From NCBI GenBank assembly GCA_021292105.1, contig CM037870.1, positions 44,100,576 through 44,164,575 of the forward strand: a stretch of 64,000 bases of DNA, read 5' to 3'. Positions 28,601 to 64,000 of the stretch are shown here, piece after piece. Under the pieces are notes generated by a model. That model searched no databases, was not told where the DNA came from, and was given only the letters and a program-made list of their open reading frames with translations. The translations under genes were made by a program, and so were the position numbers. This DNA is from Anadara kagoshimensis. Lineage: Eukaryota; Mollusca; Bivalvia; Arcoida; Arcidae. How positions within the stretch are numbered: position 1 is the stretch's first letter; each line of letters opens with the position of its first letter.

Positions 28601-31600
28601 ACTTTATTTTAAATTTTGCTCAGTCCTCGCAACAAAAATGGTTTTGCCCCGGAGGATCTAATAATGGTCAATACAATTTATAATTTCAAAGATTTTTTTT
28701 AAATGAGTACAAAGTGATGTTTTCTTATCATTAAGTAACAAATCTAATGACTAAAATTCAGAATCGGTTTTATACAGTAAAACCTCGATTCATCGCCACC
28801 ATTTGTTCAGTCATATTTTGGTGTTATAAATAAAGGGGTTTGGCGATAAATTGAGGGAGGCTCATAAAGAAAAACATAAACAAAATAGATTTTGGGACTT
28901 CAAAATAGTGTGGCGATAAGCGAGGTGGAAAGTTATCGAGGGGCATTATAACGAGGTGTTACTGTATATGAAAATATTACGAAATTCCTTCCTTGCTGAT
29001 GCCTATTTTAATCCCCATATAGTAATGTATCTATGATGTCTTGTCAGTGTTATTGTTAACTCTGACAACTACTTGAGAGTTTCATGTAGAGAATGATAAC
29101 CATTCTTATACTTACCCCACGTCTTGTAGGTTTATCATTAAAAGCCTCAATATTGTCTCTATTCCGTGGAGGCTCAAACTTAGGATTGATAAATACAGCC
29201 CCTTCCGCTATAGCTTCCAATGGAGCAGGTCCCTCATAGGGAAATCCCATACCGACGAATACCTTAAATAAAACAGAACTGATTTACTGTGCAAGATTTT
29301 GTATTTGGATTGAAAGTTGAACCAATGTCTTAATTACAATCTCAAAGCGAAATAAAAATTTTTAACTAAACACATGAAGTTCCACCAGGGCATTGAACCA
29401 CGAGAGCTCCGGAAGGGTAAGCACTAGCCTCTTGTTTAGCTAGCTACAATGAAACTATTGCATGTCAAATATACTTTTTATACATACTTCCGCCTCACTT
29501 TCTATATATGCACAGTTAGAAGACTACACGCAGTGAAACGTCTTTTTCAGTTAAAAATTTATGAACATACGGCACCACAGTGTAGGTTTAATATAACATA
29601 CTTATATGGCTAATGCATGAAATTATTTAAGTTTTGCCTTGCAACTCCTTTATAAGCAATTAATGTTGCACAATGTTCTAGGTCAATTAGGTCATGTTTT
29701 ATCAGCCAAGCCCATGATCACGTGATGTGCCACATACTTGTTAGACAAGATATATTTAGTATAGGCATTTAGCTATTCAAACTTTATCCAGTTTCCACAA
29801 GTAATCTACTATTTTAGAATATATTGTAATTCCTTATCTCAATCTCGCGATTTTAATTCTAACTCGGTTTCTTCTTGTATATTGTAGCTTTAACCACACT
29901 TAGAATTATGAGTTTGCCGGTTATAACGTCTGTAAGCAGATTTCGGATGTGAGACAGAACATAGAGAGTCAGGTATTACAGAAAACAAAAACGTATAAGG
30001 CTTTCATGGTTATTTGAGACAGTCCATTCTACTGCATAACTCCATGCAGTACAGTCAAAGCAAATGTCATTCCTTATATTTACAATCCTTTGTAACGTTT
30101 TCAAATAAACACAAAATATAAACTGACATTTTAACACTTTTCACAAAAGAAAAACAACTATAACTACCTCCTTAAAAATTGACTGTTCCAACTGTCCAAC
30201 TGCCATCGATCATTCAATAGACCACGCCCACACAACAATTGACATACGTAGCAAGAAAAATAACTCCTTTACTAAGCTTTAATTCTTTTATTATTCCATA
30301 ATCAATTAATGTATAACTGTTACATTTTCATATTAAAATTAAAACTACAATTATTGAACGATGAATTTGTAAGCATCGATGGCATGACTGAAAAATCTAC
30401 TTGCGGATTTACATGTGTATTGGTGATGAGGCCAGCTGTTGGCGGGAAAGTTGAAGGATTGTTGTCAGTTGTGATGAGCGGCATGGCGGGTGTTGACGTG
30501 TCTGCTGTGTTGGCCAAAAGTGAGCTAATAGATTGTTTTTGTGCAGTGGATATATCCCTAGAATAACTCCTTACAGATGCTTCATTTCTATGGCCGCTGT
30601 AGAACATTATTTTGCGTGTTTCCACGCCAGCATCACTTAGTGATTGGATGCATGTGGCCCGGACACAGTGAGCAGTGTAGCGGTTTGTGCATTGAGCACC
30701 CTTGGAAATATCCGGCATAAACATTTAAAGGAGTGTTTACCAAGTGCTTCAGATGAATACCAAATATTGTGTAAGTGGGGTGATTTGATTGCTTCAGGGA
30801 TGCATTTATTGAACAAACTACCAGCTTTTTTATCGGTTTTTTGGAGAAATAACCTCAACATTTTCACTGGACAAGAATCGGACCCTGTTGCGTACATTCG
30901 TTTATCGAAAATTTCTTCAGAATTTGTTAGCCCACCCTGGTAGTTTTTTTGTTGGGTTTCGTGTGTTAAGGTTACGTATTCAACGTCATTTTCGTCAAGC
31001 GAAATTTTCAAGGAATCTATATTCAATTGACGATGAAATTCCAAGCCTCTTGTAATAAAATGAATGGATATATTATACCACAGACACTGCCTGAGGACCA
31101 AGGGATTTCTAGCTGCGTCAGAAAAGTAAGTACTGATTTTATTTAAATCGTGTGGTGTAATAATAGTTTTATGTTTTGTGGGTTTTGATTTTCCAGTTGC
31201 AACTCTTTCTTTTAATATGCCATTTAATGTTTCATTTGCAAAAGAAAAATCACTGTCATGAATTATATCAAATCCCCTTTTGAGATCTTTATGGAAATGT
31301 CTGTTAATGGCCCCTCTAATATTTTTCATTGAGTTTTTTCCATAATCTTCAGATTTGTCAGTTAGTGTTCCTTCTGACTCGGTCTCGGATTTCATTTTTT
31401 TGCTTTTTGGTGGCTGTGGTTTAATTTCGGCATAAAACTTCGATAATTTATCTGCTAGCTCTGTTTTCGGTATATTCTCTGTATCCATGTTGCTCCCATA
31501 CTTCTCATTGTGCCAGTCTGAAAAAAAATATTTCTTCTGTTTACCGTCTTATAAAATCTCTCTCGCTCTCTCAAGAATTTTAAAGACATTTTACACTCGC

Positions 31601-54643: not shown

Positions 54644-55159
54644 CTTTTGCAAGCACTAATTAAAATATTTTTATTTTGTACATGTCCGTAACAAAGAAAT
54701 ATTTAATCTTAATTAAATAGTATTGACACGCTCGACCAGTAAATTTCATATTCTTGAATCCAACCGTTCTTGTGTAAATTACATTTTTCGCAAATTTAAA
54801 CGCTACATAATGTATTAGAGATACTATATTTAGTCTTTTATTTTATATTTTCCTTGTGTAAATATGATATTTAACATTTATAAGAAACCAATTTAATAAT
54901 CTATTTTCTTTATTTTGCATTATGTTACCAAAAAGACCAGTGTTGTTGTCTAACTCCATTGGAATATGTGATTTACTCTCCAGCTACGTTTAAACCTGTT
55001 TTCATAAGAGTTGAAAATAGAAAATTTGAAGTCAAATTAGTTGTAAAATTAATTTTTTAGATTCTTATAGCTATAAATTTTCTTTATAATCAGGACATGT
55101 TAGTTCACCATAATATGTGTGTAATGAAAGATGAAAAAATATGACAGAAACTTAATTTT

Positions 55160-55452
55160 TATTCCCAATTTATATCTGAAAATATATAGAACACTTATAA
55201 AATGTCCATTTCGATTTCAACATTTTCTGATATAGATTACAATGATACGTTTTAATGGTCGACTATATCAGTAAAATGACAATAATAGTGAAATTTAGTT
55301 TTTATGTGTACAACAAAACATTAATATTTGAACATTATTTGTGAATAATCTGATTATGTTTCTTCGAAATAGAACAGAATCTGTTCAGGGAGTAAACAAA
55401 CATTGAATCTTTTCATCTGTATCTTCATCTTTATGTTGGTTTTAGCATGTAC
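55160..55452 (-). other. Possible 3' UTR exon of the micro-exon gene
   Basis: An acceptor-like atttacag precedes this AT-rich stretch, and AATAAA on the - strand occurs near 55160. Assignment is by position only. Confidence 0.3.
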
Positions 55453-55788: not shown

Positions 55789-55818
55789 CTTCATAGGATT
55801 CAGCTGCTTATTCATGAT
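55789..55818 (-). CDS. Micro-exon gene: exon carrying the stop codon
   Basis: A 30-nt exon between atattccag and gtaagttg. In the common phase it adds DHE and then TAA at 55808-55810; the remaining 19 nt would be 3' UTR. Read in phase 0 it is open (IMNKQLNPMK), so another isoform is conceivable if phase changed upstream. Confidence 0.6.
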
Positions 55819-57029
55819 CTGGAATATAAAAAAATCAGAAAGATAAAAGACGTACTAGTATTTGAATTTAACATAGATTACTGTGACTGAAAACAATGTC
55901 TTTAATTAAATTTAAAACTAAAAGATGAAATAATTGACAATCTAGTGCTTGTTGAATGTGATTATAGAAACATTACATCATATAGCAGTTTGTTGAAGAT
56001 ATTAGTATATTTATCATAATACTTATACTTGTTTATATAACATTTTAATGGGTTATCATTTAAAAGAATGAAAAAATACTTATTTTATGACATATCTAAA
56101 AATGTTATAAATGGAATGACAAAACAGGCAGTCAAAAACAAACTCACGATCCCAAAAGCAAAGTAAAAACTTTGAAAAATCAATTACTTGACCTTCCAGT
56201 AGGGAATTTATTCCGAAAGGGTAAGCATCCCCTGTTCAGCTAGCTTTTTCTCGCCACATGTAAAATCGAAATGGAGAATGAGAAAAAAATGGGAACATAT
56301 CCAGGATAATTTTGGATACAGATATAATACTTGAACAATATTTCCATATTTCAACAAAAGAAAATAATCAGTTGTAAAGGATTGTGGCACTTCTTGTATA
56401 ACATAAAAATACTAAAACTATATTTATCCAAATCATGAAAATGTTAAACTGCAAATTTATACTTAATATATTTATAGTAAAAGATAAGGCGACAAGTCAT
56501 GCATTGACAATTCATTGAATCAATTTCGGTAAAATTTTTGGGTTTGCTTTTTATTTAAAACTTTTTTCTGCTGCCCAGCATATTCTGATTATGTACTAGA
56601 AACAAATATAAGTTAAGATGAGAATCAACTTACCCACCGATCCTTTCTCTAACCCGCCTGATAAATATAAGAAGAAAAAGAATAACGATAAAGATGACGT
56701 ATTACTTTCTTTGTTTTTTTGTTGTTTTTATGAACAACAAGGACGGATTACGTTGCGAAAGCAAAATAAATCTCAGAAGAATCAAATCATAATGCAGAAA
56801 CAGCAAATAAAAAAGATATAAGTTTGTTATTATTATAATGTTTTGTTTTTTTTACAATTTCCAATTAATTTGCATTACCAAATGTCATTGGTTTAAAAAT
56901 ATAATAAAAAGTGAAACACTCAAAATGTTTGCCTAAGAGCCCTATAATAATTGTTTATTTTTATTTTATTTTTGGAAATCAGGACCGGACTGTTTTTGTG
57001 ATTATATGTATTTGTATTGTTTTTTTTTT

Positions 57030-57090
<61 letters not shown>

Positions 57091-57845
57091 CTTGATTAAT
57101 ATAAAATTTTAATGCGAAGATGACAACTATAAAGAAAAATATATAGCTTAGTAAGTATAATACACGTGTGCGTGTACAAATGTTTGGGATTAAAATCGTA
57201 CTTACCAGCGTAACCACCTAGAGCTGAAATTTAAAAGGTATCCTAATTACAAACAAATATATTGTAATAAGGTCAGAAAAATGACCAAAATAACAAACAA
57301 CTAAAAATACTATTTTAACAACCAAACAATTTGGGTTTGCATTTTTATTTTTTTTTTTCTGCCGTCTTACATATTTTGATTATGTAATAGAAACATGAGA
57401 GTCAACTTACCAAACGCTTTTTTCTCTAACCCACCTGATAATTATATGAAGAAGAATAATAACAATAAAGATGACGTGTTATTTTATTTTTGTGATTTAT
57501 GTAAACAAAAAGGACAGATGATATTACGAAAGCAAAAATGAGGCTTAGAAGAATCAAATCATAATGCAGAATCAGTAATTAGAGAAAACATATTTATTAT
57601 TATTACAATGCTTTGTTTTTTACAATTTCTCTACAACTACCAGATTAATTTCACTTTTATACTTATTTTGCAAAACCCAATGTCATTGGTTTCAAAATAT
57701 AACAAAAAGTGAAATACTCAAAATATTTACCTAAGGGACCTATAATGATCGTTATTTTTTTTAATTTGGAAATCAAGACCGGATACACGTTTCAATACTC
57801 TGGATTTGTGATTTTATCGATTTTTATTGTTTTGTATGATGACAT

Positions 57846-57882
<37 letters not shown>

Positions 57883-60304
57883 CTTGAAAATGATAATTAA
57901 TATTAAATATGTATGCGAGGAATCATAAACCCTAAATTTATTTTGATTACAAAGATGACAACTATAAAACTATTAAAATGTATAGCTTGGTAAGTATAAT
58001 ACGCATGTAAGTGTACAAATGTTCGAGATTAATGGATGTAAAACTTTGTTATAACTTTTGTTAACAAAAAGATCGTACTTACTAGCGTAACCTAAATCTG
58101 AAATATAAAAGGTATCCTAATTACAAACAACTATATCGTTATAAAGTCAGACAAATTACCGAATTTACAAACAACTAAAATACGATTTTAACAACCAAAA
58201 AAGAAAAAAAACAAAGCAAAATGATAATAAAACAACAAGAGATGTTGATTAGATATTGATAAAGATGTGAACTGTTTTCCATTTATAAAACAACATTTTG
58301 CGATATTTCTACATCTTAGGACTTACGTGAAAGATAAATAGAGTACAGCATATTGACTTAAACAAGTCATCTATTAACAATTTTTTATTCTTATTTCTGA
58401 AATGCAGATTAATGACTTACTGCAGTAACTATGTTAGTATTAAGTACAATTGATGCCTATTCCATATTTTCTTCCGTAATCTTTATGCAATGTAGAATTC
58501 ACTTGAGCGTATACAACAAGTTTTAAACTACTCTTTATGGAGTTTATAGAGTTTTTTGTTTTGTATATCGGTATGTTAAATAATTGTTCTGGTGCAAAAC
58601 TATTTAATTTTTTTGCTAAGAACACTTTTGTCAGTTTTTAAGCTTTAAGCCGTAAGGTTCAATTCATTTCCTTCTGTGTATCGACTACTTTATACTGACC
58701 AGGTACATGAACATCTTCAATATACAATGGGGTTCAGCAGTGTATCATGTGATATCCTATAACATTGGTGTGGAATAATAGTTTCCATTGGAGATAGAAT
58801 CATTTCAGTCCACGTAGAAATGATGTTATTTCAGAAAATTTTGACATACAACTGTTCCAAAACTTTTCATACAAGCTTTGTGGGTATTAATTGCGTGTAA
58901 CGCTGGCGAACTGCATTAAGTGAGAATATTCCAAATATTTATTAGACCGTAGCCACTACAAACATTTACGTACCCTACCTTTCATAGAAAAAAAATACTA
59001 GTACATTTTCATCTTTTTATTGATTCTTTCTTTAATAGTTATTCATTAACAATACCAAACAAGCATATTACTATGCCTGTTTTCATTTTGCAGCACTGGA
59101 TGATTCTGTCGAAATTATGTAATAATCATATTAATTGATAACATTATCTTAAACAATCGTGTTTGCATTTTAAACTGAATTACACATTTTAAGCAGAATA
59201 TATCATCTTGCTAAACGCTAATGTTTTTGTTAAATGTAAACATAAGTTTATATAATGATCAGCTTACCTCCTGCTCTTTTCGCTAACCTTCTTCCTGTGT
59301 AATATATATATAAATATACTGTATCAGATACGTTTGTAGATAATTTACATATAATGATTTTTAATTTTTGAAAAATTAAAATCACGAATTTGCAAACATC
59401 TCAAACCTAGTTAAGTAGGTAAATTTATATTTGTTTCGCAGATATTTGGTTGCAAAACAGTTACTCTCATGAACGTACGCAATTTATCTGAATACCAAAA
59501 CAGTTGATATTAATGTTTGAAAGGCAGAAAAGCTTCAGCAAATCAAACACAATAATATAATCCGTGTCCATGCTCAAAAAACAATCACAAAAAACTAAAG
59601 CCCATCGACTCTAATTGTGTTGGTAAAAATAATATGTTCTCGGAGAGAGAGAGAGAGATTTATTTCTTTGTACATGATAATTGACTGGTGATAAATATGT
59701 TTTGAAAGAAATGTATAACAAGTCAAATACTCGTTTTAGTTTTCATCTTTTCTTGGAAAATGAATTTGTCCTGTTATGTTTGTCAAAACACCTTCACTTA
59801 CCTTTCCTATCCTGCTTTGGCACTAGAAATGAAATATAGAAGAATCAATACAAGAAAGAATATGGAATAAAGCCAGAGAATTTACCAAAATCTATAAAAA
59901 CTTAAGAATGTATGATTTATAACAAAAACAATAACAATAAAGATCATATATTGATTGTTGGGATTGTGATTTTAATGTGAACTCATATGTATGGTTTTCT
60001 TCCTAATCAAAATATTATTTTCTAAACAATAAACTTCAAGCATAAAATCATGCTAAGATTTGATATGTTTCAAAACATTTTTCATTTTTCATGTTGTCTT
60101 TCAAACCAATTTCAAGCTTTTTAGAGGCAAATATATTATATTTGATTTTTCTCAACAAGTTTTAATTGAATCTGTAATGAAAGAAAAAGTTTATATTACG
60201 GTCAAGTACATAAATTTGAAGTTCTATATTTCCTGTTCCTTCCATTCTTTATTTCGCTCTTACACGTGGTGCAGATGTAGCTAGAAAAATAGGAAGTGTT
60301 TACC

Positions 60305-60386
<82 letters not shown>

Positions 60387-62915
60387 AGAGGGAGGCATTT
60401 TGTTTTTCTAGTACATGAGAATTTTAAACTTTCCTTAAAAACTGGAATTTACATACTACGTTTCGTAAAAAAGGCCGTACTTACAATGGGTTCCCCCTAA
60501 AATGAAACAAAATGTATACAAATATAAAAGAATAAAGGAAAAAAGCCAGAAATCTAAAATAACTTAACAAAATATGATTTATAACAAAAGCGAAGATCAT
60601 TTATTGTAATTTCAACACCAACTGGTATGTTTGGTTTCGATTGATAAAATTGAAAACTATTAAAGACCGATTTAAAACAGATCTTGTCGATATTTGCAGA
60701 TATTTAATAGAAAAACAATGAAAAACTTACTAACGTAAGCAGTATACCTAGATACCAAAGCAGTTGATGTTTGAAGAACAGAAAAGGCTCAGCAAATAAA
60801 ACATGAACATATTTTATGAATATATTCATACTCATGTTCAAATTGCAATTATAAATCAAACTAAAAACTTTGAGATTTTACGTGGTTCAAATTCGCCGGA
60901 TTTTATGAAAATGTCATGTTTTTGCGTTTGAATTTCACCATCTTGCAATATTTCATAATGTTTCTAATTGTTCAACTTACCTGCCGCTCTTTTCGCTAGC
61001 CCTCCTGTGAAAAATATAAATATTACATATCAGTTACTACACATTGCCTATAATGACTTTTAAATTTGCATAATAAAAATCGCGACCTCGCAGATATCTT
61101 AATCCTGTAGTGTAGAAGAGTTCTGTCTTATCGACTTAACTGTATTTATAAATATAATAATATAATATGTTCTGAGAGAGATTTAAAAATTCTTGTGCAT
61201 AATAATTCATGCGATTGTTGATAAACACAGAAATTTGGTTTGATCATAAATATGTTAAATACATTTAACAGAAATGTATAGCTTGGCAAGTATAATTCTT
61301 ATTCAAATTCTTAACTATACAAACTAGGATAAATTTTTCATGTTATAGTTGTCAAAAAGGTCGCACTACCAAAGGAGCCACCTAGAACAAAAACAAATAA
61401 AAACGTATTATGGAATAGCACCTAAAGACTAAATAAAGTAACATTTCTAACTAACACAGATCATATATTGATTGTAGAGAGCGTGATTTATGTTTTATTT
61501 TAATTATTTCGTTTTGTATCGATTTATGTCACGTGTTAAAGCCAGTAAAGTACGCATATTGTAACGTACCGTTCATTTTCCACAATAAATATATTATCTG
61601 ACGATTTCTGGATAATAAACTTCAATCAAAAAACAAATGTTTCATCATTTTAAAATTGGTTGTGTAACGTCATAAAAAATCTTTCAAAGTTAATTTTTCT
61701 TTTAAACTAATTTCAAGCTTTTGGAAAGCTATATATATATACTTTAGATAACTGTTTCTTTCGGTTGTCTTAACAATTTTTCAGTGTAACTTTAATAAAA
61801 TAATAAGCTGATATAATACGTTTAAATATAACTTATACTGAGTTACATGCAAGAGGTGATAAACCAAATTTGAATTTGAATCACTTGGTGACAAACAAAG
61901 CTTTACAATACAATACACGGTTGGGCAAGTCAATTTTCAAAATTATATCCAAATAAACAAAAAATGAACATTCAAAGTTACTGTTATTTTGCATCTGATA
62001 TTCCAGTCTCGTTGAAATCTCCTTTGAAATTTATTTAGAAAATACGTAAACTGGAATGAATTGTGAATAAATTCAAGTATTATTATGTAAAAAAATTGTA
62101 TTTATGACATGTAGTTTTAAATAAAAATATTTTTCAAGTTTTAAAACTATAAAGAAAAATGGTGTTTGCCAAAGTATGGAGAAAATGGTGTAGGTGTATA
62201 AAAATTCACTTTACAAAATTAATTCACATCACATGTCAATTTTAGCTTTTCAAAACTCTGTGATATGCATTTTCACAATCATTTATCTACAAAAAAGTTG
62301 TATTTAAACCGAATAACATTGAAAAAGCACGATTTTAACAAAAGGTTTTCATCATTGAATTTGGCCATGAAAAACAACAAAAAATGTAGAAACTGAGTTT
62401 TTTTTAAAGCAAATGGATGTGTAACGTGTGGATTTTATGAAAATGTCATGTTTTTGCGTTTGAATTTCACCATCTTGCAATATTTCATAATGTTTCTAAT
62501 TGTTCAACTTACCTGCCGCTCTTTTCGCTAGCCCTCCTGTGAAAAATATAAATATTACATATCAGGTACTACACATTGCCTATAATGACTTTTAAATTTG
62601 CATAATAAAAATCGCGACCTCGCAGATATCTTAATCCTGTAGTGTAGAAGAGTTCTGTCTTATCGACTTTAACTGTATTTATAAATATAATAATATAATA
62701 TGTTCTGAGAGAGATTTAAAAATTCTTGTGCATAATAATTCATGCGATTGTTGATAAACACAGAAATTTGGTTTGATCATAAATATGTTAAATACATTTA
62801 ACAGAAATGTATAGCTTGGCAAGTATAATTCTTATTCAAATTCTTAACTATACAAACTAGGATAAATTTTTCATGTTATAGTTGTCAAAAAGGTCGCACT
62901 TACCAAAGGAGCCAC
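55789..62915 (-). CDS. Micro-exon gene, 3' end (Gly/Leu/Ala/Lys-rich peptide), unknown function
   Basis: Fourteen small exons on the - strand, thirteen internal ones of 9 to 27 nt. Each is a multiple of three and each joins in the same phase (two bases in, one base out). Twelve of the fourteen have clean GTAAG/GTAAA donors, and all have AG acceptors, mostly after T-rich tracts. Joined, they stay open to a TAA in the terminal exon. The product runs GSFGGLAKRAA twice, then GTHLPKQDRKGRRLAKRAG, DLGYASPLG, GLEKKAF, ALGGYAGLLG, GLEKGSVDHE, stop. Repeated LAKR and RR could be dibasic processing sites, and the composition suggests a secreted repeat peptide, but no signal peptide or start is visible; the 5' part must lie beyond 64 kb. 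I do not recognise the family. The organisation resembles micro-exon genes described in schistosomes, by architecture only. Confidence 0.7.
56130..56335 (-). mobile_element. Retroelement 3' fragment in a micro-exon gene intron
   Basis: On the - strand it reads YPKLSW followed by the degenerate tail. The only clear family member between the micro-exons. Confidence 0.45.
56634..56657 (-). CDS. Micro-exon b1 (24 nt)
   Basis: Between atttatcag and gtaagttg. Encodes GLEKGSV. Confidence 0.7.
56934..56942 (-). CDS. Micro-exon c1 (9 nt, GC donor)
   Basis: GGCTCTTAG between attatag and gcaaac. The donor has GC in place of the GT in its paralogue c2, so it may be used weakly or be dead. Omission keeps the frame. 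Confidence 0.35.
57031..57087. repeat. (GA)n microsatellite
   Basis: About 27 GA units inside unit A, between exons c1 and a1. Confidence 0.95.
57206..57223 (-). CDS. Micro-exon a1 (18 nt)
   Basis: Between aaatttcag and gtaagtacg. Encodes LGGYA with split codons. Confidence 0.7.
57411..57434 (-). CDS. Micro-exon b2 (24 nt)
   Basis: Between aattatcag and gtaagttg. Encodes GLEKKAF. Paralogue of b1. Confidence 0.7.
57731..57739 (-). CDS. Micro-exon c2 (9 nt)
   Basis: GTCCCTTAG between attatag and gtaaatat. Encodes PL with split codons. Very short; supported by phase, a paralogous copy at 56.9 kb and position in the module. Confidence 0.45.
   Translation of the reverse strand, partial: VP
57848..57880. 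repeat. (GA)n microsatellite
   Basis: About 15 GA units at the equivalent place in unit B. Confidence 0.95.
58083..58097 (-). CDS. Micro-exon a2 (15 nt)
   Basis: ATTTAGGTTACGCTA between atatttcag and gtaagtacg. Encodes (D)LGYA. Paralogue of the 18-nt exon at 57.2 kb, one codon shorter. Confidence 0.65.
59268..59294 (-). CDS. Micro-exon b3 (27 nt)
   Basis: Between attacacag and gtaagctg. Encodes RRLAKRAG. It is a diverged relative of b4 and b5 with one extra codon. Confidence 0.7.
59802..59822 (-). CDS. Micro-exon a3 (21 nt)
   Basis: Between catttctag and gtaagtga. Encodes PKQDRK, the most polar segment, with split codons in the common phase. Confidence 0.65.
60306..60381. repeat. Compound (TG)n(AG)n microsatellite
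   Basis: About 25 TG units followed by about 12 GA units. The ORF starting MCVCVCV is an artefact. Confidence 0.95.
60485..60496 (-). CDS. Micro-exon (12 nt)
   Basis: GGGGAACCCATT between cattttag and gtaagtacg. Encodes GTH with split codons. It shares the donor type gtaagtacg with the exons at 57.2 and 58.1 kb. Confidence 0.65.
60981..61004 (-). CDS. Micro-exon b4 (24 nt)
   Basis: Identical exon and splice sites to b5, in the left copy of the 1.53-kb tandem duplication. Confidence 0.7.
61370..61381 (-). CDS. Micro-exon a4 (12 nt, weakened donor)
   Basis: Same 12 bases as a5, but one T is missing on the genomic + strand just outside the exon, turning the donor from gtaagtgcg into gtagtgcg. 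It may be skipped; skipping would keep frame. Confidence 0.5.
62513..62536 (-). CDS. Micro-exon b5 (24 nt)
   Basis: Between tttttcacag and gtaagttg. Encodes GLAKRAA plus split Gly codons. Identical to b4. Confidence 0.7.
62904..62915 (-). CDS. Micro-exon a5 (12 nt)
   Basis: GTGGCTCCTTTG between ttgttctag and gtaagtgcg. Encodes (G)GSF with split codons. Rightmost exon detected. Confidence 0.65.
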
Positions 62916-64000
62916 CTAGAACAAAACAAATAAAAACGTATTATGGAATAGCACCTAAAGAACTAAATAAAGTAACATTTCTAACTAACAGATCATATAT
63001 TGATTGTAGAGAGCGTGATTTATGTTTTATTTTAATTATTTCGAACATGTTTTGTATCGATTTATGTCACGTGTTAAGCCAGTAAAGTACGCATATTGTA
63101 ACGTACCGTTCATTTTCCACAATAAATATTTATCTGACGATTTCTGGATAATAAACTTCAATCAAAAAACAAATGTTTCATCATTTTAAAATTGGTTGTG
63201 TAACGTCATAAAAAAATCTTTCAAAGTTAATTTTTCTTTCAAACTAATTTCAAGCTTTTGGAAAGCTATATATATATACTCTAGATAACTGTTTCTTTCG
63301 GTTGGCTTAACAATTTTTCAGTGTAACTTTAATAAAATAATAAGCTGATATAATAAGTTTAAATATAACTTATACTGAGTTACATGCAAGAGGTGATAAA
63401 CCAAATTTGAATTTGAATCACTTGGTGACAAACAAAGCTTTACAATACAATACACGGTTGGGCAAGTCAATTTTCAAATTTATATTCAAATAAACAAAAA
63501 ATAAACATTCAAAGTTACTGTTATTTTGCATCTGATATTCCAGTCTCGTTGAAATCTCCTTTGAAATTTATTTACAAAATACGTAAACTGGAATGAATTG
63601 TGAATATATTCAAGTATTATTATGTAAAAAACATTGTATTTATGACATGTAGTTTTAAATAAAAATATTTTTCAAGTTTTAAAATTATAAAGAAAAATGG
63701 TGTTTGCCAAAGTATGAAGAAAATGGTGTAGGTGTACAAAAATTCACTTTACAAAATTAATTCACATCACATATCAATTTAAGCTTTTCAAAACTCTGTG
63801 ATATGTATTTGTACAATCATTTATCTGTAAAAAAGTTGTATTTAAACCGAATAACATTGAAAAAGCACGATTTTAACAAAAGGCTTTCATCATTGATTTT
63901 GGCCATGAAAAACAACAAAAAATGTAGAAAAATGTAGAGTTTTTTAACGCAAATGGATGGGTAACATGTGTAAAAAATGGAAACATTGTCAAAACAGAGG

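What the first reader, a model, noticed from the sequence alone, without database searches (positions are those of the whole stretch)
55789..62915. A gene made of in-frame micro-exons (9-27 nt)
Seen directly: thirteen tiny segments on the - strand, each bounded by AG and (with two exceptions) GTAAG/GTAAA, each a multiple of three, each open in the same phase, joining into one ORF that ends in a TAA. Chance would break length, phase or frame somewhere. Inference: a repeat peptide of the form GSF-GLAKRAA ... LGYA-PL-GLEKKAF ... LGGYA-LL-GLEKGSVDHE, possibly secreted, with dibasic LAKR sites. Because every exon is symmetric, any subset can be skipped without frame loss, so one locus could yield many peptides. 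Micro-exon genes with this design are known from schistosomes; I know of no such bivalve family with these motifs.
Basis: partly seen in the sequence, partly recalled or inferred. Interest (0 to 1): 0.92.

Follow-up and report, generated by a model that had tools for sequence, protein, structure and literature searches.

The report
Secreted peptide-precursor gene of micro-exons
The tiny segments are the tail end of one long animal gene cut into about 35 very small coding pieces, which joins into a probably secreted protein with regularly spaced cutting sites, an unusual design that would let one gene make many different short peptides.

Summary
The 13 micro-exons plus a stop exon at 55789-62915 (- strand) are the 3' third of one gene model that runs about 49 kb past the right edge of the window. 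It has a TATA box, a signal-peptide-like exon, 35 coding exons (median 24 nt) and one reading frame of 346 aa across 34 introns: the first phase 0, the others phase 1, allowing for two adjacent exons whose length changes cancel. A paralogue 1.55 Mb away keeps the architecture in 36 exons (399 aa); a partial third copy keeps the last four. Introns between copies carry many indels; exons keep frame. The protein is a signal peptide, then units mostly of 18-26 residues closed by KR/RR, then a Gly/Ala-rich end. Unit exons differ between A and B faster than flanking introns, almost only by amino-acid changes; all dibasic sites but one (lost in A) persist. Best reading: a fast-evolving multi-peptide secreted precursor whose micro-exon modules multiply by intragenic duplication. 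No homologue was found. Expression, isoforms, function and species are not shown. It works like schistosome micro-exon genes and aphid bicycle genes but lacks their sequence signatures.

The parts
62904..62915 (-). micro-exon GSF, copy 1 (12 nt), donor gtaagt
   Evidence: identical in paralogue B (B 12453-12442)
62513..62536 (-). micro-exon GLAKRAA, copy 1 (24 nt), dibasic KR
   Evidence: pattern found only in A and B loci in the genome
61370..61381 (-). micro-exon GSF, copy 2 (12 nt), weak donor gtagtg
   Evidence: product of a recent tandem duplication, absent from B
60981..61004 (-). micro-exon GLAKRAA, copy 2 (24 nt)
   Evidence: B has one such exon
60950..63900 (-). stretch holding the two tandem copies (about 1.4 kb each) of the GSF + GLAKRAA exon pair
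   Evidence: introns 22 differences in 1372 sites, exons 0 in 36
60485..60496 (-). micro-exon GTH (12 nt)
59802..59822 (-). micro-exon PKQDRK (21 nt)
59268..59294 (-). micro-exon RRLAKRAG (27 nt), dibasic RR and KR
58083..58097 (-). micro-exon LGYA (15 nt)
57731..57739 (-). micro-exon PL (9 nt)
57411..57434 (-). micro-exon GLEKKAF (24 nt)
57206..57223 (-). micro-exon LGGYA (18 nt)
   Evidence: also in partial copy C as LGGYG
56933..56941 (-). micro-exon LL (9 nt), GC donor (gcaaac) in A and B, GT donor in copy C
56634..56657 (-). micro-exon GLEKGSV (24 nt)
55789..55818 (-). exon with last codons DHE and stop TAA (30 nt; stop 19 nt before the donor)
55145..55452 (-). terminal 3'-UTR exon; AATAAA at 55163; its 3' end is inferred
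   Evidence: acceptor and AATAAA conserved in B

Best explanation
A real spliced gene encodes a secreted prepropeptide. It runs from about C14:44213774 (start codon) to about C14:44155720 on the minus strand. A signal peptide sends the chain into the secretory pathway. Subtilisin-like proprotein convertases (furin/PC type) then cut after the KR/RR doublets that close nearly every unit, releasing a set of peptides, mostly of 10-38 residues. Each unit is coded mostly by one or two symmetric phase-1 micro-exons, so units can be gained by intragenic tandem duplication, lost, or skipped in splicing without breaking the frame. Some unit exons are under diversifying change while signal peptide and cleavage sites are held. 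The most likely role is a gland or epithelial secretion of variable bioactive peptides (defence, chemical or reproductive signalling) rather than a conserved neurohormone. Shown: exon chain, phase, frame in two full copies, unit copy-number change, divergence pattern. Inferred: transcription, splicing, secretion, cleavage, alternative splicing, role.
For: One frame from ATG to TAA through 34 introns in A (346 aa, 35 coding exons) and 35 introns in B (399 aa, 36 coding exons); first intron phase 0, the rest phase 1 apart from the A pair below. TATAAAAG 86 bases before the ATG in both copies, AATAAA after the stop in both. In A two adjacent exons are 16 and 17 nt where B has 18 and 18, and the changes cancel, so the full chain stays open. 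The only other exon indel among 1:1 exons of A and B is 3 nt in the PRPP exon; partial copy C has 0 gap columns in 81 exon sites against 127 gap columns beside 1453 aligned intron sites (p=0.002). [KR]R doublets: 12 in A (shuffle mean 4.2; 3 of 20000 shuffles reach it), 17 in B (mean 5.2; 0 of 20000). Unit exons A vs B: 30 differences in 579 sites against 142 in 5528 flanking sites, p=8e-4; over the 1:1 exons pN 0.040, pS 0.008, p=0.04. AYEP/AFEP duplicate exons: 14 of 51 against 63 of 640 in introns, p=6e-4. Unit numbers differ: the 63-nt exon is 1 in A, 4 in B; GSF+GLAKR is 2 in A, 1 in B.
Against: No transcript or protein was seen. Two searches of 5.8 billion predicted proteins gave nothing (7996 and 7993 candidates scored), although a neighbouring single-exon gene had a 99% match there; a spliced message, if held there, should have matched. 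Copy A lost one KR site through the 16+17-nt pair, which leaves a 65-residue piece, and has a weak donor at 61369, so A may be decaying. The C-terminal exons' conservation (0 of 309 against 52 of 4533) is not significant (p=0.077), and in copy C the exons differ as much as the introns (8 of 81 against 100 of 1453). pN>pS is only marginal (p=0.04), and gene conversion makes local divergence uneven. One intron is 25.8 kb among a median of 662 nt, and 4 of 6 signal-like starts in it are open in both copies, so two genes are not excluded. Signal peptide and cleavage were judged by eye, with no predictor. Some pieces are too short to be peptides (LA between RR and KR).
Confidence: 0.6

Rival explanations
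1. Neuropeptide or hormone precursor: the C-terminal and signal parts, unchanged between A and B, hold the active peptides (for example AAGGSFGGLA or AGDLGYASPLGGLEKKAF...), and the fast units are mere spacers.
For: Signal peptide plus many KR/RR sites is the classical plan. C-terminal exons are unchanged between A and B (0 of 309). AAGGSFGGLA-KR stands once as a free unit in A, and GGSFGGLA-KR ends the piece before it; one possible amidation site (G-RR).
Against: No other glycine precedes a doublet; units differ strongly from each other; no Pfam match and no homologue, whereas many neuropeptide precursors are conserved across a phylum (recalled).
Confidence: 0.22
2. Structural extracellular protein (ligament, shell or thread matrix) built, like elastin, of small phase-1 exons; the lysines serve cross-linking and the doublets are incidental.
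For: C-terminal part is Gly/Ala/Leu-rich with GGLAK/GGLEK repeats; small symmetric exons multiplied by duplication are known from elastin (recalled).
Against: Only the last third or so is Gly-rich; the rest is charged units closed by KR/RR, above shuffle, and those sites survive fast change of the rest with one exception.
Confidence: 0.15
3. Two adjacent genes: an upstream KR-unit precursor (SP to GGFG exon) and a downstream Gly-rich gene, separated by the 25.8 kb gap.
For: The gap is far longer than other introns. Of six signal-like starts in it, four are open in both copies (A 75769, 71754, 68867, 68733), two of them followed by dinucleotide repeats.
Against: Phase runs through; KR-AAGGFGG before the gap (copy B) matches KR-AAGGSFGG after it; the two other signal-like starts (A 87223, 81939) are broken in B; the gap has few strong phase-1 exons (2 at score >=14, 0 at >=16); no stop exon for an upstream gene was identified.
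Confidence: 0.15
4. Chance arrangement of splice-like signals without a gene.
Against:: density far above null, one frame through 34 and 35 introns in two copies, indels in introns, genome-wide exon patterns confined to these loci with control 0.
Confidence: 0.02

Closest known systems
Schistosoma micro-exon genes (MEGs)
   Same: 10-20 very short exons, mostly multiples of three, 6-81 bp, introns to almost 5000 bp, N-terminal signal peptide (PMC10526429, passages); accelerated evolution (PMC4350168, listing only)
   Different: Here 35-36 coding exons, KR/RR at unit ends, 346-399 aa (longest MEG there 189 residues); no Trp, so not the MEG motif; no sequence match
Aphid bicycle genes
   Same: Many tiny internal exons nearly all starting at codon position 2, signal sequences, fast protein change, structure better kept than sequence (PMC9168663, passages)
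   Different: No CYC motif (Cys almost absent outside the signal peptide); dibasic units; three copies found, against 121 homologues in the pea aphid
Multi-peptide prohormone and antimicrobial peptide precursors (general, recalled)
   Same: Signal peptide, repeated units closed by KR/RR
   Different: Coded by micro-exons; no homology found; one possible amidation signal only
Pedal peptide/orcokinin-type precursors
   Same: Short units ending in ...FGGLA-KR look alike (recalled resemblance)
   Different: No repeated [F/L]D-x-[I/L] start; no family match
Elastin-type genes
   Same: Small symmetric phase-1 exons, Gly-rich repeats with Lys (recalled)
   Different: Dibasic units and only a partial Gly-rich region

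Membership tests
Schistosome MEG family | Most exons very short, multiple of three, long introns | tested here: met
   32 of 35 (A) and 35 of 36 (B) coding exons multiples of three; exons 9-69 nt, A median 24, A introns median 662
Schistosome MEG family | N-terminal signal peptide | tested here: inconclusive
   MTGFGVAALCGVLFLCFIQ-N(A/V)DA looks like one, hydrophobic score 2.94; no predictor run
Schistosome MEG family | Hydrophobic/aromatic motif with Trp soon after the signal peptide (PMC10526429) | tested here: not met
   0 Trp in either protein
Schistosome MEG family | Alternative splicing of micro-exons | not testable with these tools
   no reads
Aphid bicycle genes | Many short internal exons starting at codon position 2 | tested here: met
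   34 of 35 introns within B's coding part are phase 1, so the exon after each starts at codon position 2
Aphid bicycle genes | CYC motif(s) | tested here: not met
   0 CYC in both proteins
Multi-peptide prohormone (general plan) | Repeated dibasic sites above chance | tested here: met
Multi-peptide prohormone (general plan) | Cleavage into peptides in the animal | not testable with these tools
   needs peptidomics
Pedal peptide/orcokinin | Repeated [F/L]D-x-[I/L] peptides (recalled) | tested here: not met
   [F/L]D occurs once in A (LDGSMG) and twice in B (LDVIQK, LDGSMG); no Pfam family
Elastin-type | Alternating hydrophobic and Lys cross-link domains along the whole chain (recalled) | tested here: not met
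   only the C-terminal part is Gly/Ala-rich (by eye)

The most novel reading that the evidence does not exclude
An independent origin, in a mollusc-like animal that is not a parasite, of the micro-exon effector design known from schistosomes and aphids, here fused with a prohormone-like plan: each micro-exon pair codes one convertase-released peptide, so duplication and exon skipping turn one locus into a combinatorial, positively selected peptide library.
Probability: 0.35. Interest if true: 0.82.

Novelty: new variant of a known kind. Interest (0 to 1): 0.66.

Why it matters
Genes of this kind are easily missed by ordinary gene finders. Micro-exon designs have turned up in secreted host-facing genes of schistosomes and aphids; a case in another lineage with peptide-precursor logic would test whether symmetric micro-exons are a general solution for fast peptide diversification. 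The A, B and C copies give a ready natural experiment on gain and loss of units and on frame-saving changes.

Tried and rejected
A first gene start at A 102357 (MMWMCLILMVILF...) was taken as signal peptide, then rejected: strong exons lie upstream, a better signal exon with a TATA box exists at A 113199, and a similar T-rich stretch precedes sister exons as intron. A 78-nt candidate at A 98412 is read differently in B. A 60-nt candidate exon at A 101064 (VYEPNLVNHMEAFPHPLNE) is in both copies with a weak donor; it was left out of the models and may be a cassette. Pfam gave nothing meaningful (none; best COG3_C, E 0.12, below cut-off). Text search for six peptide strings found no paper. Distant paralogues of the 5' part were sought by DNA similarity, but that search did not complete.
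Full report
OBSERVATION. The minus strand at 62915-55789 was read and cut into exons. A scanner with splice weights set from general knowledge (not trained on this genome) finds 10 strong phase-1-open micro-exons in 7.3 kb; 300 first-order Markov sequences give a mean of 0.25 and at most 3. Real sequence of window 1-55 kb gives 2.18 (-) and 2.73 (+) per 10 kb at that cut-off, against 13.7. The finding is not chance.

EXTENT. The window is C14:44100576-44164575 of a 1.115-Gb genome in 36 contigs. Below, 'A' coordinates continue the window's numbering to the right (window + L009-L018). The exon series goes on: LLLGGGA 64136-64113, SLDGSMGPSNH 65548-65513, then a 25.8-kb intron, GGFGGAA 91324-91301, 17 coding exons between 92692 and 106278, and the signal-peptide-like exon at 113199-113143. 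TATAAAAG stands at 113285 and a 3'-UTR exon with AATAAA follows the stop. Full chain in A: 35 coding exons (9-69 nt, median 24; 22 of 35 are at most 27 nt), introns with a median of 662 nt, 346 aa with no stop. The first intron is phase 0 and all others phase 1; inside the 16+17-nt pair described below the phase shifts and comes back.

COPIES. A stretch of about 90 kb (A 55049 to at least 144203) recurs at C14:45.705 to at least 45.795 Mb, in collinear blocks of 88-99% identity, most above 93%, one of 82% (80 of 95 rows shown). The fetched B stretch has no N and a sharp left border just past the gene's 3' end, which speaks for a true segmental duplication, though a haplotype artefact was not excluded by read depth. 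Copy B reads through 36 coding exons to 399 aa. It has four copies of the 63-nt unit exon where A has one, and one GSF+GLAKR pair where A has two. In A two neighbouring exons are 16 and 17 nt against 18 and 18 in B; the losses sum to three, so A stays open (VFPNRCHSEEG instead of VFPELDVIQKRA), at the price of one KR site. A third, partial copy C at about C14:45687641-45689141 keeps exons LGGYG, PL, GLEKGSV and DHK-stop with splice sites at all four (the last donor read); its introns show 100 differences in 1453 sites plus 127 gap columns, its exons 8 differences in 81 sites and no gap: frame is kept, but the exons are not more conserved than the introns. Genome-wide searches for six exon types (seven patterns) hit only these loci, with 0 control hits each; C appears in two of them. 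More distant relatives could escape such patterns. A DNA search with window 60000-61000 found A, B, A's own duplicate and repeats (40 of 92 candidates scored).

PROTEIN. Signal peptide MTGFGVAALCGVLFLCFIQ-N(A/V)DA (by eye), then units mostly of 18-26 residues each closed by KR or RR (for example GLSVPNIEESSLLTETSRQ-RR, SVAYEPTLNKHMIEVQPNYMH-KR, SVAFEPKVESNVEAVQPNYMQ-KR), then Gly-rich pieces ending GGSFGGLA-KR, and a 38-residue Gly/Leu-rich tail. Cut at [KR]R, A gives pieces of 23, 19, 26, 23, 21, 21, 18, 19, 65, 10, 14, 2 and 38 residues; the 65 is where A lost a KR, and B has 27 and 37 there. [KR]R doublets: 12 in A against a shuffle mean of 4.2 (3 of 20000 shuffles reach it); 17 in B against 5.2 (none of 20000). 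There is no Pfam family, no relative in two searches of 5.8 billion proteins (about 8000 best candidates scored each time), and no paper of the held library with any of six peptide strings.

HOW IT EVOLVES. Between A and B the 15 unit exons with a 1:1 partner (NAD to IQKR, without FPEL and the 63-nt exon) have 30 differences in 579 sites against 142 in 5528 flanking sites (p=8e-4). Four of them, picked after the fact, carry 26 of 187 against 49 of 1409; many of the others are unchanged. The 15 C-terminal exons have 0 of 309 against 52 of 4533, with the flanks of three exons dropped as misaligned, p=0.077, so not significant. The signal exon has 0 of 57 against 7 of 382. Over the 1:1 exons, leaving out FPEL, IQKR, the 63-nt exons and the second GSF/GLAKR pair, pN is 0.040 and pS 0.008 (28.3 of 700 against 1.7 of 206; p=0.04 on rounded counts). 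One of the changed codons lies in a dibasic site and keeps it (RERR to REKR). The older duplicate exons AYEP/AFEP differ at 14 of 51 sites against 63 of 640 in their introns (p=6e-4; with their KR exons pN 0.26, pS 0.11). The older triplet LGYA-PL-GLEKK / LGGYA-LL-GLEKGS differs at 11 of 48 sites against 110 of 571, with 3 gap columns in an exon: no excess there. Gene conversion between copies is likely (six exon flanks have 0-1 differences in about 380), so rates are uneven.

MECHANISM. Shown: exon chain, phase, frame in two complete copies, unit duplication, dibasic excess, fast amino-acid change in some units. Inferred: transcription, splicing, secretion, convertase cleavage, exon skipping. 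I hold a fast-evolving multi-peptide secretion most likely; a conserved neurohormone and a structural protein are the main rivals. The doublets argue against a purely structural protein; the lack of any relative and the near absence of amidation signals argue against a standard neuropeptide. The 25.8-kb intron leaves room for a two-gene reading (four of six signal-like starts in it are open in both copies), but phase and the KR-AAGG(S)FGG motif run across it.

KNOWN KINDS. Schistosome MEGs (PMC10526429: abstract start in the listing, passages) and aphid bicycle genes (PMC9168663: abstract start, passages) share the architecture, the latter even the codon position at which exons start: in B all introns of the coding part but the first are phase 1 (34 of 35). 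Their sequence signatures (the Trp-bearing motif; CYC) are absent here. Full-text searches pairing micro-exon words with bivalve, mollusc or Crassostrea (listings only, 10 of 20 shown) listed no paper whose title or abstract start describes such a gene in a mollusc; most subscription papers are not held.

LIMITS. No reads were available. The 5' DNA-similarity search and a COX1 search stayed unanswered.

Noticed in passing
window 30637-31488 (-): 283-aa ORF with Pfam DUF3504 (E 3.6e-9), probably part of a mobile element (recalled association).
   Followed up: partly
C14 right flank, A coordinates 124854-123229 (-): Open frame without introns for a 7TM receptor (PF10324, E 5.5e-17 for a 399-aa part), upstream of the micro-exon gene; one 99% match in a public contig.
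   Followed up: partly
L015 7718-8215 (-): Reverse-transcriptase-like ORF with a YADD motif, a LINE-type element by eye.
   Followed up: no
A coordinates about 151.9-161.5 kb, right of the window: About 3.73-kb block present three times in tandem, seen as exactly repeated candidate exons.
   Followed up: no
window 60300-60400, 57030-57095, 57850-57880: CT and CA microsatellites inside the short introns of the gene.
   Followed up: no
window about 60206-60307: Short repeat in an intron that matches 47 other listed places in the genome at 74-82% identity, one array of them on C8.
   Followed up: no
A coordinates 101064 (B 55764), minus strand: Possible further 60-nt in-phase exon VYEPNLVNHMEAFPHPLNE with a weak donor, present in both copies; may be an extra cassette.
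   Followed up: partly
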